This document shows positions 39,944 through 45,553 of a stretch of DNA of 48,774 bases, piece by piece. How positions within the stretch are numbered: position 1 is the stretch's first letter; each line of letters opens with the position of its first letter. This DNA is from Candidatus Pacearchaeota archaeon (GTDB lineage: Archaea; Nanobdellota; Nanobdellia; Pacearchaeales; GW2011-AR1). The notes under the pieces are model-generated. The model worked only from the letters and a program-made list of their open reading frames with translations. It ran no database searches and was not told where the DNA came from. Both the position numbers and the translations under genes were made by a program. Location of the stretch: NCBI GenBank assembly GCA_019662115.1, contig JAIFVW010000001.1, positions 1 to 48,774 on the forward strand. Reading direction: 5' to 3'.

Positions 39944-41473
39944 ATGCTCTCTCCACTTAACCTAAATCCTGTAATTCCTGCCCTTCCTCGAATAGATGAT
40001 AAAAAGAAGGTAAATGTAAGATACATGCTTGTGCCTCCTTATGCTTCAGCGCATATTTTTTGGAACAATGAACTTGGGGAGCTTACTTATGAGATTGAGG
40101 AGCCTATTCTACATGAAGATGAAAAAGAGGCCCTTGAAAAACTTGAGCAGGCCATGCTTGAGATAATAAATGTTAATGTTGCTGTGGAAAAAACTTTAGA
40201 GGCGACAACAAGCTACATCGACAAGACTGCAAGGCTTTTGATTGAAGAATTAAATATGCATATGTCTGCAGAGACCTACAGCAAGCTTTTCTATTATCTT
40301 TTCAGGGATTTCATAGGCCTTAATGAGATAGATCCAATTCTAAGAGATTATTTTATAGAGGACATTGAATGCAATGGAATTGACACTCCAGTATATCTTA
40401 TCCATAGAGTTTACAGAAATATGAGAACAAATATAGTTTTCAGGGATATAGAAAAGCTTGCAAGCTTCGTTGAAAAGCTAGCGCAAAGATGCGGAAGATA
40501 TGTCTCATATGCACAGCCTCTTCTTGATGGTACTCTTCCTGATGGAAGCAGAGTAAATGCAACATACACTAAAGACGTCACTTCTAGAGGCCCTACATTC
40601 ACGATAAGAAAATTCACTAAAGTTCCATGGACTCCCACACAACTTATAGCCTTCAACACAATGAGCCCAGAGATGCTTGCATATTTCTGGATTTTGCTGC
40701 AGTATAAGGCAAGCATACTTATAGCAGGAGGAACCGCTTCAGGAAAAACAACTCTGCTTAATGCGCTTGCATTCTTCATCCCGCCTGAAGCAAGAGTTGT
40801 AAGCATTGAAGATACAAGGGAAATTAATCTGCCAAGGGAAAACTGGCTTCCTGCAGTTGCAAGAACATCAATAGGAGTTGGAAAAGTTGGAGAGGTTGAC
40901 CTTTTCGCATTACTGAAAAGCTCATTTAGACAGAATCCTGATTATCTTATTGTGGGAGAAGTCAGAGGAAAAGAGGCATTCGTACTTTTCCAGGGAATGG
41001 CTTCTGGACACGCATCACTAAGCACTATGCACGCAGACTCGGTAGATACGCTCATAAGAAGATTGCAGACACCTCCAATTAATCTCTCTCCTACACTTGT
41101 CAATTCACTTGATTGCGTTGCAATAGCAACGCACGCCGTGTCAAGACAGCAGGAGACAAGAAGAGTGAGGGAAATTGTTGAGATACTTAATGTTGAAAAG
41201 GATGGCACTGCACTCGTCAATACTCCTTTCATATGGAATCCAAATCAGGACGTGTTTTATTTCAAAAAACAAAGCAAGGTGCTTGAAAAGATTGCTGCAA
41301 GAAGAGGAATTCCCCTTGAAAAATTGCAAAAGGAGTTCCTGACAAGAGCAAAGCTTCTTTATGAGCTCTATAAAAACAGGATTTTTGGATTTGACGAGAT
41401 AGGCAAGATAATAAATGACTATTACAAGAACCCGGTGGATGTCTTAAGCAAGTATAATATCATCGAAGAATAA
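39944..41473 (+). CDS. Type II/IV secretion-type assembly ATPase (PilB/FlaI/TadA family)
   Basis: Walker A GGTASGKTTLLNAL; SIEDTREI; RQNPDYLIVGEVRGKEAFVLFQGMASGHASLSTMHA. Confidence 0.96.
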   Translation: MLSPLNLNPVIPALPRIDDKKKVNVRYMLVPPYASAHIFWNNELGELTYEIEEPILHEDEKEALEKLEQAMLEIINVNVAVEKTLEATTSYIDKTARLLIEELNMHMSAETYSKLFYYLFRDFIGLNEIDPILRDYFIEDIECNGIDTPVYLIHRVYRNMRTNIVFRDIEKLASFVEKLAQRCGRYVSYAQPLLDGTLPDGSRVNATYTKDVTSRGPTFTIRKFTKVPWTPTQLIAFNTMSPEMLAYFWILLQYKASILIAGGTASGKTTLLNALAFFIPPEARVVSIEDTREINLPRENWLPAVARTSIGVGKVGEVDLFALLKSSFRQNPDYLIVGEVRGKEAFVLFQGMASGHASLSTMHADSVDTLIRRLQTPPINLSPTLVNSLDCVAIATHAVSRQQETRRVREIVEILNVEKDGTALVNTPFIWNPNQDVFYFKKQSKVLEKIAARRGIPLEKLQKEFLTRAKLLYELYKNRIFGFDEIGKIINDYYKNPVDVLSKYNIIEE

Positions 41474-41505: not shown

Positions 41506-41667
41506 ATGGAAAGAGAGGTAATAACGCTCCTGGCTCAGCTTCTGACTGGAATTAAAGACGCATTGGTAAAGCTTGAGAGGGCTGAAAAAATAAAAGACAC
41601 TGAAGATATTGCCATGGCTAAAAGGGAGATACTGAATTTCCAAAATCAGATAAACAAGCTCCTATGA
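41506..41667 (+). CDS. 53-aa helical protein absent from the supplied ORF track
   Basis: MEREVITLLAQLLTGIKDALVKLERAEKIKDTEDIAMAKREILNFQNQINKLL*, 4-nt ATGA overlap with the next CDS. Confidence 0.7.
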   Translation: MEREVITLLAQLLTGIKDALVKLERAEKIKDTEDIAMAKREILNFQNQINKLL

Positions 41668-42956
41668 TAGACGAACTAAAGAGGAATATAGATGTAGAGA
41701 TCGAGATGCTCAGGGAAATATCAAACTACAGCAGAAGGCTGCAGGTTGCGGCCCCTGCCGAGAGAAATATTCTTGAGAATGCGCTTGCATCTCTAAGGAA
41801 TAGCATGAAAATAATCAATCAGTCAATACCTTCGCTTCTTGGAAGTGTTGGAGTGCAACAACTTACAAGGCCCGTTAATACTGCCCTTGAAAAAGTTAAT
41901 TTCAACAGGAGCAGCACCCCTCTTACTGTTGTCGTACCACGGAGCACAAGAGACAAGCTTCTCAATGAGTTAAGCATAAGCGATAGCCTGATGCGCAAGC
42001 TAAAGAAAAAGCATCATCTTGACAAGGAAAAATTTGAGGAGTTCAGGGCTGCAAGAGGATATCTTAAATTTGCCAACAAGATGTTCCAGGAGACTGCAGA
42101 AAGGCTCATAAGAAGAGGCCATTTCCAGAAGCTTTCCGTTGAGATAAAAAAGGCTAATATAGATGTGCTTTTTGAAACTTATGTCTCTATGATATTTCTT
42201 TCAACTTTCATTGCATTTTTCCTATCTCTAGGAGTTTCATTAATTTTGTTTTTCTTTTCAGTCTCGCTTTCTCCTCCTTTTATAAGCCTATATGCAGGAT
42301 CTTTCATTACAAGATTCAGCCAGATAATATGGATCCCTCTTGTTTTCCCAGTAGTGGTTTTCTTTTCACTTTACATCTATCCATCTACTGAAAAAAGCTC
42401 CATTGCCAAGAGAATAGAACAGGAGCTTCCTTTTGCAGTCATACATATGAGCGCGATCTCTGGATCTGGAATTGAGCCAAGTGAGATATTCAAGATCATA
42501 GGCTTAAACAGAGAATATCCTTATCTTAGGACAGAGATAAGAAAAGTTCTAAACCAGATCAATATTTACGGATATGACCTGGTGACTGCATTGAACAATG
42601 TCGCCAAGGCAACTCCAAGTAAAAAGCTTGCAGAGGTATTGTCTGGATTGGGAACAACAATACATTCCGGAGGAAGCCTTCCTGACTTTTTTGAGAAAAG
42701 ATCAGATACACTCTTGATTGAATATAGAGTTGACAGAGAGAGATTCACGAAAATTGCAGAAACCTTCATGGACATATATATCAGCGCAGTCATTGCGGCC
42801 CCTATGATACTAATGCTTCTACTTGTGATGATAGGAGTCTCTGGAATAAATGTAGGATTCACCCCTCTTCAGATGACCTTCCTCATCATTCTCATCATTG
42901 CACTTATAAATGTTGTATTCATAGGATTCCTGCAGATAAAGCAGCCAACATACTGA
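41664..42956 (+). CDS. T2SSF/TadC-type membrane platform protein 1
   Basis: LPFAVIHMSAISGSGIEPSEIFKIIGLNREYPYLRTEIRKVLNQINIYGYDLVTALNNVAKATPSKKLAEVLSGLGTTIHSGGSLPDFF plus TM segments. Confidence 0.92.
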   Translation: MIDELKRNIDVEIEMLREISNYSRRLQVAAPAERNILENALASLRNSMKIINQSIPSLLGSVGVQQLTRPVNTALEKVNFNRSSTPLTVVVPRSTRDKLLNELSISDSLMRKLKKKHHLDKEKFEEFRAARGYLKFANKMFQETAERLIRRGHFQKLSVEIKKANIDVLFETYVSMIFLSTFIAFFLSLGVSLILFFFSVSLSPPFISLYAGSFITRFSQIIWIPLVFPVVVFFSLYIYPSTEKSSIAKRIEQELPFAVIHMSAISGSGIEPSEIFKIIGLNREYPYLRTEIRKVLNQINIYGYDLVTALNNVAKATPSKKLAEVLSGLGTTIHSGGSLPDFFEKRSDTLLIEYRVDRERFTKIAETFMDIYISAVIAAPMILMLLLVMIGVSGINVGFTPLQMTFLIILIIALINVVFIGFLQIKQPTY

Positions 42957-43825
42957 TGAGACTAAAAAAAATGCACTGGGTGGGAATAATTTTTTCAGTC
43001 ATAATAGCTGGAGTAGACACTCTATTTTTTCTTGGGGATTCCAATCTTTTCCTTTTTCTCCTGGGAATAGCAGCAGGGATAGTCGCCCTTCCTTTTGTAA
43101 TAGGACTTATACTGGAAAATAAAAGAGAACAGGAGATAAGCGATATGTTTCTAGAGTTCTCAAGAAATCTTGCAGAAAGCGTTGCCACTGGCACTCCAAT
43201 AAGCAAGAGTATCATAAACATGAGCAGGAAGAATTATGGATCGTTGAATCTTTATATTGCAAAGCTTTCCAACCAGATCTCCCTTGGGATCCCTGTAAAT
43301 CAGGCCCTTCATAATTTTGCATACGATGTCGACTCTCCTGTTATAAGCAGGGCAATAACACTGATAAGCGAGGCAGAAAGAGCAGGAGGAGAGATTGACT
43401 ATATCCTAGAATCATCTGCAAAGGCAATATCAGAGGTTGAGAAACTAAAGAAAGAGAGGCAGTCTTCCATCTATAATCTTGTAGTTCAGGGATACATCAT
43501 ATTCTTCATATTCATAGGAATAATGCTTGTCATGGAGTTCAAGATCCTCCCTCTTACTGCAGGAATAGGATCTATTGGATCTTTCAGTCTTTCCTCAATA
43601 ACTTCAATCGCAGACACTTCGGCCTCAACAGGGCCTGCTATATCTGCGCAAGAGCTTGCAAGGCCATTCCTATATCTTCTCTTAAGCCAGGGATTTTTTG
43701 CAGGACTTACTATAGGAAAGATTACCGAAGGATCAATGAAGGCTGGAATAAAGCATTCGTTCATACTGACAATTGCAGCATTCCTTATTTCAACTGGTGC
43801 AGAAGCTACAAGAAGATATTTCTAA
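42956..43825 (+). CDS. T2SSF/TadC-type membrane platform protein 2
   Basis: MFLEFSRNLAESVATGTPISKSIINMSRKNYGSLNLYIAKLSNQISLGIPVNQALHNFAYD…AERAGGEIDYILES. Confidence 0.92.
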   Translation: MRLKKMHWVGIIFSVIIAGVDTLFFLGDSNLFLFLLGIAAGIVALPFVIGLILENKREQEISDMFLEFSRNLAESVATGTPISKSIINMSRKNYGSLNLYIAKLSNQISLGIPVNQALHNFAYDVDSPVISRAITLISEAERAGGEIDYILESSAKAISEVEKLKKERQSSIYNLVVQGYIIFFIFIGIMLVMEFKILPLTAGIGSIGSFSLSSITSIADTSASTGPAISAQELARPFLYLLLSQGFFAGLTIGKITEGSMKAGIKHSFILTIAAFLISTGAEATRRYF

Positions 43826-43850: not shown

Positions 43851-44081
43851 ATGGATATGGTTTGGAAAGACTGGCCTTATTGGTTGAAGGGAGGAATAAT
43901 ATTTGCAATCATTGGATTTGTTTCTGGCTGTGTTTTAAGTCAAAATGATACTTTCGTTTTAAGCGGGTCTTCAGACGTTGTATGGATTGTATATATGGCG
44001 ATTTCCCTTACGATTGTGGGCTTTATAGTTGGTACAATTCTCGGGTCAATTTATGGAAGCATAAAGAATAAAGAAAAATAG
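43851..44081 (+). CDS. Small two-TM membrane protein
   Basis: Two hydrophobic segments in 76 aa. Confidence 0.68.
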   Translation: MDMVWKDWPYWLKGGIIFAIIGFVSGCVLSQNDTFVLSGSSDVVWIVYMAISLTIVGFIVGTILGSIYGSIKNKEK

Positions 44082-44810
44082 CTAATTTCTTTCAGCAAGG
44101 TAAAAGATCTCGTTCTTTCTTGCAAGCATTTTGAACTTATAATTCAAACGAGCAAGAAGGTGCTCTATCCAGCCTCGCTGAGGATGGTTCATAGGTTTTC
44201 CTGAGAGAGTTTTTGTCGAGAAGCTGATGAGAATGTGCTTTGAATGAATGTGGTTTATTATTTTCTCCGCGAGCTTATGGCCCTTGCTTTCAAGGACATC
44301 AAAAAGCTTTAGGATCAAAGTTATGTCGGTTCTTGGAAGATCATCTTTTATTTTCCTTACATCATAGAAAAATGCCCTGCCTTTAATATTGTTTAGCTTG
44401 AAATAATCATGTATTATTTTCAATTCATCTTCCTTTATATCGACTGCATAATATTCCAGTGAGGGTTCTGCAAGAGCAAGAGGATTGAGACCGCATCCCA
44501 GGTCGAGGATTGATTGTACATTTAAATCCTTGAGCATTGATTTCAGGAAAGGATAGTCTTCTTTCCTTTCTTTTGTTGAGGCATGAGCATCAAGGATATT
44601 CTCTTTTTTTGACGTGTACTGGAACCTTCCAGTAAGTTTTCGCAATGAATTTCTGACTGATTTTATTATTACCTTGATTTCCTTTTCAGAAAGAGAGGCT
44701 AGGTCGATATTCTTTGTCTCTTTATTGAGTTCTTCCTCTACAATTTTTGAAGAGAGGCCTGAAAGCTCCTTCTTTTCTTTGATCTTGGTTATCAAGTCTT
44801 GCCTGTTCAT
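44082..44810 (-). CDS. 16S rRNA (guanine-N7) methyltransferase-like protein, ArmA/Rmt/FmrO family
   Basis: ASTKERKEDYPFLKSM…VQSILDLGCGLNPLALAE…YAVDIKEDEL…ITLILKLFDVLESKGHK…HILISFSTKTLSGK. Confidence 0.85.
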   Translation of the reverse strand: MNRQDLITKIKEKKELSGLSSKIVEEELNKETKNIDLASLSEKEIKVIIKSVRNSLRKLTGRFQYTSKKENILDAHASTKERKEDYPFLKSMLKDLNVQSILDLGCGLNPLALAEPSLEYYAVDIKEDELKIIHDYFKLNNIKGRAFFYDVRKIKDDLPRTDITLILKLFDVLESKGHKLAEKIINHIHSKHILISFSTKTLSGKPMNHPQRGWIEHLLARLNYKFKMLARKNEIFYLAERN

Positions 44811-44860
44811 ATAGAATCATACAGAGGAACGTATATAAATTGTCAGCTCCATTGTGTTTT

Positions 44861-45553
44861 ATGAAAAGAGGAGCAAGCCATATCGAGGCCATATTGGCAT
44901 TTGTATTGTTCATAAGTTTTGTAGTTGCTGGATTTTATTTTTTCACACCTACAAGTTCAAGGCTTGCTGATTCATCATTAAGTTATGCAACCAGGGAAAT
45001 AATGAAAAACATAAGCATTTCAATAGAGACTTATGGTGTAAAGATCAATCAGTCTTCCAGGAAACTTGATGTAATTCCGGTAGACATACTTGTTCCAGCT
45101 GGCAGACATGTAAGGGCAGAAAATGGGAGTGCAATACTCCCTGCAAGAATAGGAAGCAACGGAGTAACATACGTCAATATAAGCGGAAGCGGCTTCATAA
45201 CTCTTGAATATGCAGATGATATACTTCCTTCTGCTGGCCCTTTAGAGTTCGATTATGATCGGCAGATTGTATATTCCTCACTTGCATCATCAAGAGATGA
45301 AAATATCCTATCAAAAAAAAGGATTATTGGATTGAATGAGTCTTATTTTAATAAATATGATATGTTGAAGCAGCAATTCAACCTTCCTGATAGGGTTGAT
45401 TTTGGATTCAGCCTTGATCTTCCTGGTTTGAAAATAACCAGTGAAAGAAATATCCCGCAAGGGATTAATATTTATTCCAGTACTATGAGGGTGGAGATGC
45501 TTAATGAAACTGGAGACAGAGAGTTTGGAGACCTCACAATAAAAGTATGGTAA
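44861..45553 (+). CDS. Type IV pilin-like protein 4
   Basis: MKRGASHIEAILAFVLFISFVVAGFYFF, Glu at +5; ATG 44861 preferred. Confidence 0.75.
   Translation: MKRGASHIEAILAFVLFISFVVAGFYFFTPTSSRLADSSLSYATREIMKNISISIETYGVKINQSSRKLDVIPVDILVPAGRHVRAENGSAILPARIGSNGVTYVNISGSGFITLEYADDILPSAGPLEFDYDRQIVYSSLASSRDENILSKKRIIGLNESYFNKYDMLKQQFNLPDRVDFGFSLDLPGLKITSERNIPQGINIYSSTMRVEMLNETGDREFGDLTIKVW

What the first reader, a model, noticed from the sequence alone, without database searches (positions are those of the whole stretch)
44082..44810. ArmA/Rmt/FmrO-like 16S rRNA methyltransferase in an archaeal genome
The translation reads along recalled ArmA-type m7G1405 methyltransferases through several blocks: N-terminal helices, ASTKERK…, ILDLGCGLNPLALAE, YAVDIKEDEL, LILKLFDVLESKGHK, ILISFSTKTLSGK. 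These enzymes are best known as bacterial aminoglycoside-resistance factors acting on the 30S A-site. Here the gene is antisense inside a type IV filament locus, in a cell with an archaeal ribosome. It could be a housekeeping A-site modification, self-protection, or a relative ancestral to the resistance genes.
Basis: partly seen in the sequence, partly recalled or inferred. Interest (0 to 1): 0.7.

Follow-up and report, generated by a model that had tools for sequence, protein, structure and literature searches.

The report
Archaeal cousin of ribosome-methylating resistance enzymes
A tiny-genome archaeon carries an intact, long-inherited relative of the bacterial enzymes that methylate the ribosome's decoding site to resist aminoglycosides; in these archaea it looks like a routine ribosome-modifying enzyme, not a borrowed resistance gene, but its exact target base is unproven.

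Summary
The ORF at 44082-44810 (-) encodes a 242-aa class I methyltransferase of the FmrO/ArmA/Rmt superfamily: Pfam FmrO over its cut-off, profile hits only to m7G1405 enzymes before a large gap, and the top 15 fold matches all m7G1405 enzymes. It scores far below NCBI's Rmt equivalog cut-off (99.6 of 250 bits), and the loop beside the target base differs from the bacterial one.

It is not a stray resistance gene. Homologues (E<1e-10) occur in 144 of 282 sampled genomes of the window's phylum, concentrated by family and following family lines on the tree; 3 of 199 Bacillota have one. The gene is under purifying selection and keeps its place in a type IV filament locus in five genomes. A Sgm-like homologue was already noted in 2013 as a Nanoarchaeota signature gene (PMC3655853).

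Best reading: a housekeeping decoding-site 16S rRNA methyltransferase, probably m7G1405 here (the same-genus genome has G1405 and A1408). Caution: eight genomes carry a natural A1405-U1496 pair, and four keep an intact enzyme (binning supported for three). Either the target is not always G1405-N7, or the enzyme outlived its target. The target is undetermined.

The parts
44082..44810 (-). FmrO/Rmt-superfamily methyltransferase gene, 242 aa
44622..44810 (-). N-terminal helical part, residues 1-63; matches the Rmt N-terminal domain, which (from memory of the RmtC-30S work) docks on 16S rRNA
   Evidence: model helices 3-10, 21-32, 42-59; NF000466 match starts at residue 21; R53, L56, G61 conserved with bacterial enzymes
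44565..44579 (-). STKER motif, residues 78-82; R82 equals RmtC R111 and Sgm R108 (SAM-binding by memory)
44481..44510 (-). Motif I ILDLGCGLNP, residues 101-110; D103 present in every row and N109 in 98% of rows of the 56-sequence alignment
44289..44315 (-). ILKLFDVLE segment, residues 166-174; K168 equals RmtC K204; archaeal D171 where bacteria have P/T
44169..44225 (-). SFSTKTLSGKPMNHPQRGW, residues 196-214; presumed target-base loop, archaeal MNHPxRxW in place of bacterial KGMEENYxxW
44832..44839 (.). Palindromic TATA box (TTTATATA on -, TATATAAA on +) about 25 nt from both divergent ATGs (44810 on -, 44861 on +); fits two leaderless transcripts (inference)
   Evidence: sequence; same box upstream in L021 and a similar box in L022
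39944..41473 (+). T2SSE-type secretion ATPase of the surrounding filament locus (context)
   Evidence: Pfam T2SSE 1.3e-31
41664..42956 (+). T2SSF membrane platform protein (context)
   Evidence: Pfam T2SSF 6.7e-15
42956..43825 (+). T2SSF membrane platform protein (context; the syntenic neighbour on the 3' side in five genomes)
   Evidence: synteny in L003, L004, L021, L022
44861..45553 (+). Uncharacterised protein, the syntenic divergent neighbour in five genomes

Best explanation
The gene encodes a SAM-dependent methyltransferase of the FmrO/ArmA/Rmt superfamily that serves as a housekeeping small-subunit rRNA modification enzyme in this lineage of Nanoarchaeota. Its N-terminal helices would dock it on the assembled 30S subunit near helix 44. 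Its Rossmann domain would hold SAM through the STKER arginine and the DLGCGLNP loop. The flipped-out decoding-site base, most likely G1405 in this organism, would be methylated on N7. Shown here: the fold, the SAM-site motifs, purifying selection, vertical inheritance, and G1405/A1408 in the same-genus genome. Inferred: 30S docking, base flipping, the N7 chemistry, the exact nucleotide and the housekeeping role.
For: Pfam FmrO over threshold. A profile of six archaeal proteins hits the eight m7G1405-enzyme sequences in the PDB at 4e-24 to 3e-19, next family 3e-5. AF2 model pLDDT 81.7, with the top 15 Foldseek hits RmtB, Sgm, RmtC, RmtF and ArmA. Catalytic-side residues kept: R82, D103, N109, K168, S196, F197, W214, E234. 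Presence in 144 of 282 genomes at E<1e-10, structured by family, such as 25/27, 8/9, 5/5, 0/11, 0/11; family labels need 20 changes on the enzyme tree against a minimum of 17, so inheritance is mostly vertical; 3/199 Bacillota with a strong match. Conserved gene order in five genomes. dN/dS about 0.12. Same-genus 16S has G1405-C1496 and A1408; 74 of 78 enzyme-bearing genomes have G1405.
Against: Eight genomes have A1405-U1496 and four of them keep an intact enzyme with ordinary branch length, scattered over the tree; contig composition supports correct binning for three. Enzyme presence and base 1405 show no association (Fisher p = 0.72). The equivalog cut-off is missed by 150 bits, and the presumed target-base loop is not the bacterial one. 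The window's own assembly has no 16S gene.
Confidence: 0.58

Rival explanations
1. Same enzyme family and same 30S docking, but the archaeal clade methylates a different nucleotide (another invariant G or A of the decoding region), so the base at 1405 does not matter.
For: Four genomes keep an intact enzyme with A1405, which is not a guanine; A1405 arose in several separate lineages without decay of the enzyme; G1401, G1494, A1408, A1492 and A1493 never vary among 135 genomes; the presumed target-base loop differs from bacteria.
Against: 74 of 78 enzyme-bearing genomes do have G1405; every characterised member of the fold family known to me acts on G1405; one of the four A1405 cases looks misbinned (G054).
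Confidence: 0.25
2. The substrate is not small-subunit rRNA at all (for example tRNA or the large subunit); only the fold is shared.
For: No substrate has been tested; sequence identity to characterised enzymes is only 24-26%.
Against: The N-terminal helices that pair with the Rossmann domain in Rmt enzymes are present and aligned.
Confidence: 0.1
3. It is an aminoglycoside resistance or self-protection gene.
For: Family relationship to ArmA/Rmt/Sgm; all 135 genomes checked have A1408, the aminoglycoside-sensitive state.
Against: No mobile or biosynthetic context; family-wide vertical distribution against 3/199 in Bacillota; fixed synteny.
Confidence: 0.05
4. It is a recent transfer from bacteria.
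For: None beyond the family name; it was first described as a 'bacterial 16S rRNA methyltransferase' homologue (PMC3655853).
Against: Identity to bacterial forms 24-26% against 87, 54 and 44% within archaea; bacterial rows form a separate branch; conserved synteny across genera.
Confidence: 0.02

Closest known systems
ArmA / RmtA-H / Sgm (aminoglycoside-resistance m7G1405 methyltransferases; Pfam FmrO, NCBIfam NF000466)
   Same: N-terminal helices plus Rossmann domain, STxER arginine, D-x-G-C-G-x-N-P motif, FK/LK and S-F segments, terminal E; nearest solved structures
   Different: 24-26% identity; below the equivalog cut-off; MNHPxRxW loop and 'FD' where bacteria have KGMEENY and 'LP'; lineage-wide and vertical rather than sporadic and mobile
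Nanoarchaeum equitans / Nst1 Sgm-like gene, a Nanoarchaeota signature (Podar et al. 2013, PMC3655853)
   Same: Same superfamily in the same archaeal group, described there as a homologue of a bacterial 16S rRNA methyltransferase with Sgm as reference
   Different: Those sequences were not compared here; the passage read gives no target in the archaeon and no distribution beyond two genomes. The present data extend it to 45 of 87 sampled families
NpmA/KamB m1A1408 methyltransferases
   Same: Also a decoding-site 16S rRNA class I methyltransferase
   Different: No NpmA/KamB family appeared in the Pfam or NCBIfam hits and no NpmA/KamB structure in the PDB sequence hits or the listed fold hits
Generic class I methyltransferases (TehB, Hen1, UbiG)
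   Same: Rossmann SAM-binding core
   Different: Scores far weaker than for FmrO/Rmt and no matching N-terminal part

Membership tests
FmrO superfamily (Pfam PF07091) | Score over the curated gathering cut-off | tested here: met
   59.3 bits against 27
Rmt-type m7G1405 equivalog (NCBIfam NF000466) | Score over the curated cut-off of 250 bits | tested here: not met
   99.6 bits; no genome of the phylum sample reaches it, best 172.8. So it is not filed as an Rmt equivalog.
m7G1405 methyltransferases (Arm/Rmt) | N-terminal helical domain before the Rossmann fold | tested here: met
   Model helices, full-length alignment to RmtB/Sgm/RmtC structures; high rmsd (about 14 A) leaves the domain orientation uncertain
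m7G1405 methyltransferases (Arm/Rmt) | SAM-site motifs STxER and D-x-G-C-G-x-N-P | tested here: met
   R82, D103, N109 conserved with ArmA/RmtB/RmtC/RmtF
m7G1405 methyltransferases (Arm/Rmt) | Target-base loop (S/G)G(R/K)xxGMExxY | tested here: inconclusive
   S203, K205 and M207 align with RmtC S239, R241 and M245, but the rest of the loop is MNHPxRxW; the functional roles of these residues are from memory, since the RmtC papers are not held
m7G1405 methyltransferases (Arm/Rmt) | Substrate base G1405 present in the host ribosome | tested here: inconclusive
   Own 16S gene absent from the assembly; same-genus G001 has G1405; clade-wide 74 of 78, but four A1405
m7G1405 methyltransferases (Arm/Rmt) | N7 methylation of G1405 and 4,6-aminoglycoside resistance | not testable with these tools
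   Needs biochemistry
Acquired resistance gene | Sporadic distribution with mobile context | tested here: not met
   Family-structured presence and conserved synteny

The most novel reading that the evidence does not exclude
The archaeal branch is a housekeeping decoding-site methyltransferase whose target is not, or not only, N7 of G1405: several Nanoarchaeota lineages replaced the nearly universal G1405-C1496 pair by A1405-U1496 yet kept the enzyme intact. That would make the bacterial resistance enzymes one specialised branch of a family with a different or broader rRNA target.
Probability: 0.3. Interest if true: 0.78.

Novelty: new variant of a known kind. Interest (0 to 1): 0.5.

Why it matters
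ArmA/Rmt enzymes are treated as resistance genes of producers and pathogens. A broad, vertically inherited archaeal branch gives the family a plausible non-resistance role and predicts an uncharacterised modification in the decoding centre of Nanoarchaeota ribosomes, testable on an existing co-culture. The natural A1405-U1496 ribosomes offer a ready test of what the enzyme recognises, and are themselves unusual at a position normally taken as universal.

Tried and rejected
(1) Generic methyltransferase: rejected, a large score gap separates m7G1405 enzymes from all others. (2) Viral or phage origin: a scan of viral contigs with the archaeal alignment found no relative. (3) The Lachnospiraceae hit L026: its genome has no NF000466 match, so it is treated as an unrelated methyltransferase. 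(4) Association of enzyme presence with the base at 1405: none (Fisher p = 0.72). (5) Columns 1390-1419 and 1484-1539 of 16S compared between genomes with and without the enzyme: none singles out a target; base 1498 varies more in enzyme-free genomes, which may be shared ancestry. (6) A1405 as a binning error: contig 4-mers support genuine binning in G034, G110 and G251, not in G054. (7) Direction of evolution between archaeal and bacterial enzymes: unrooted tree, left open. (8) Papers on RmtC and Sgm residue roles are not held.

Full report
What is there. The ORF at 44082-44810 on the minus strand is a complete 242-aa gene. It reaches Pfam FmrO at 59.3 bits against a cut-off of 27 and matches the NCBI Rmt-generic profile over residues 21-238 with E 1.8e-28, though far below that model's equivalog cut-off, 99.6 of 250 bits. 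In the PDB it finds ArmA, RmtF, RmtB, Sgm and RmtC. A profile of six archaeal relatives finds the eight m7G1405-enzyme sequences at 4e-24 to 3e-19, and the next protein family only at 3e-5.

Structure and residues. The AlphaFold2 model (mean pLDDT 81.7) has three N-terminal helices followed by a Rossmann domain. Its first 15 Foldseek hits in the PDB are all m7G1405 enzymes. The N-terminal orientation is uncertain: rmsd is about 14 A over the full length but 4.5 A for ArmA, whose deposited chain is only about 200 residues. SAM-side residues are conserved with the bacterial enzymes: R82 of STKER, D103 and N109 of DLGCGLNP, K168, S196-F197, W214 and E234. The loop that in bacteria reads KGMEENY is MNHPxRxW in the window's group, keeping M207 and basic K205. 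That this loop contacts the target base rests on memory of the RmtC work; those papers are not held.

Context. The gene sits in a type IV filament/T2SS-like cluster (T2SSE ATPase 39944-41473, T2SSF proteins 41664-42956 and 42956-43825), between the second T2SSF gene and a divergent gene starting at 44861. The same order is found in four other genomes (L021, L022, L003, L004) whose enzymes are 87 to 42% identical by tblastn. A palindromic TATA box at 44832-44839 lies about 25 nt from both divergent start codons; the same box stands before the orthologue L021 and a similar one before L022. dN/dS against L021 is about 0.09/0.76. The gene is therefore maintained and probably has its own promoter.

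Distribution. One copy in the own genome. In 282 genomes of the phylum, 144 have a match at E<1e-10. Presence is structured by family: 25/27, 8/9, 5/5, 5/5, 5/5, 4/4 and 4/4 in some families, 0/11, 0/11, 0/9 and 0/8 in others; within-family concordance is 0.75 against 0.50 for shuffled labels, maximum of 1000 shuffles 0.575. On the enzyme tree, family labels of 87 rows in 18 families need 20 changes, close to the minimum of 17. In 199 Bacillota genomes only three have a strong match. Plasmid hits are the clinical rmt/arm genes, at about 30% identity or less. A viral-contig scan found no relative. This is the pattern of an old chromosomal gene, not of a mobile resistance gene.

Decoding-site bases. 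The window's assembly holds no 16S gene. The same-genus genome G001 has G1405-C1496 and A1408. Among 135 genomes with a readable decoding site, A1408, A1492, A1493, G1494, G1401, U1406 and C1407 are invariant. G1405-C1496 is replaced by A1405-U1496 in eight (G034, G035, G037, G039, G046, G054, G110, G251); every A1405 comes with U1496. G268 has the intermediate G1405-U1496. Four A1405 genomes carry an intact enzyme (G034, G054, G110, G251), on separate branches and with branch lengths of 0.41 to 0.71 against a median of 0.39. Contig 4-mer profiles place the 16S and enzyme contigs together for G034, G110 and G251, but not for G054, which may be misbinned. Enzyme presence shows no association with the base at 1405 (p = 0.72; p = 0.46 without G054).

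Interpretation. The simplest account is a housekeeping decoding-site methyltransferase, m7G1405 in this organism. The A1405 genomes weaken the extension to the whole clade: adenine at 1405 cannot become m7G, so either the enzyme has another target there, accepts A1405, or persists without its original substrate. The data do not separate these.

Prior knowledge. Podar et al. 2013 (PMC3655853) list a homologue of a bacterial 16S rRNA methyltransferase, with Sgm as reference, among 15 genes shared by N. equitans and Nst1 and not found in other archaea then known. So presence in Nanoarchaeota is not new; the breadth, vertical inheritance, synteny, archaeal loop signature and co-occurrence with A1405-U1496 are additions made here, and I found no paper on them in the held library. 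Known modifications around 1404 in Haloferax (an unidentified C* at 1404; PMC2584109) do not include m7G1405.

Limits. All genomes are assemblies, mostly from metagenomes. Other archaeal phyla and Actinomycetota were not searchable here. The tree has no outgroup and used a quick search. No substrate was tested.

Noticed in passing
G034 L290; G110 L129; G251 L130; G054 L128; G035 L127; G037 L126; G039 L095/L305; G046 L307: Natural A1405-U1496 pair in the 16S decoding site of eight Nanoarchaeota-phylum genomes; G268 (L312) has the G1405-U1496 wobble intermediate.
   Followed up: partly
L161 (G294), L162 (G089): Both genomes have U1404-A1497 in place of C1404-G1497, plus A1498; each has two FmrO-like genes, one archaeal-type (L228/L229) and one that branches next to the bacterial enzymes but lacks the STxER arginine motif and the SFxTK segment (L043/L044).
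   Followed up: partly
L009-L018 and L236-L246: A divergent subfamily in the window's own family with GAGVNGFSY for GCGLNPLAL and a different C-terminal loop; it is a separate, strongly supported clade from the window's type.
   Followed up: partly
L294-L304 (G004, G007, G015, G018): 16S rRNA gene matches are broken near model position 828/829 in several Pacearchaeota genomes, as if by an intron, an insert or split contigs.
   Followed up: no
window 43854-44081 (+): Small ORF for a likely membrane protein squeezed between the T2SSF gene and the methyltransferase stop codon.
   Followed up: no
16S position 1498: Base 1498 is U in 76 of 78 enzyme-bearing genomes but A or C in 10 of 57 enzyme-free ones; may be shared ancestry.
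   Followed up: no
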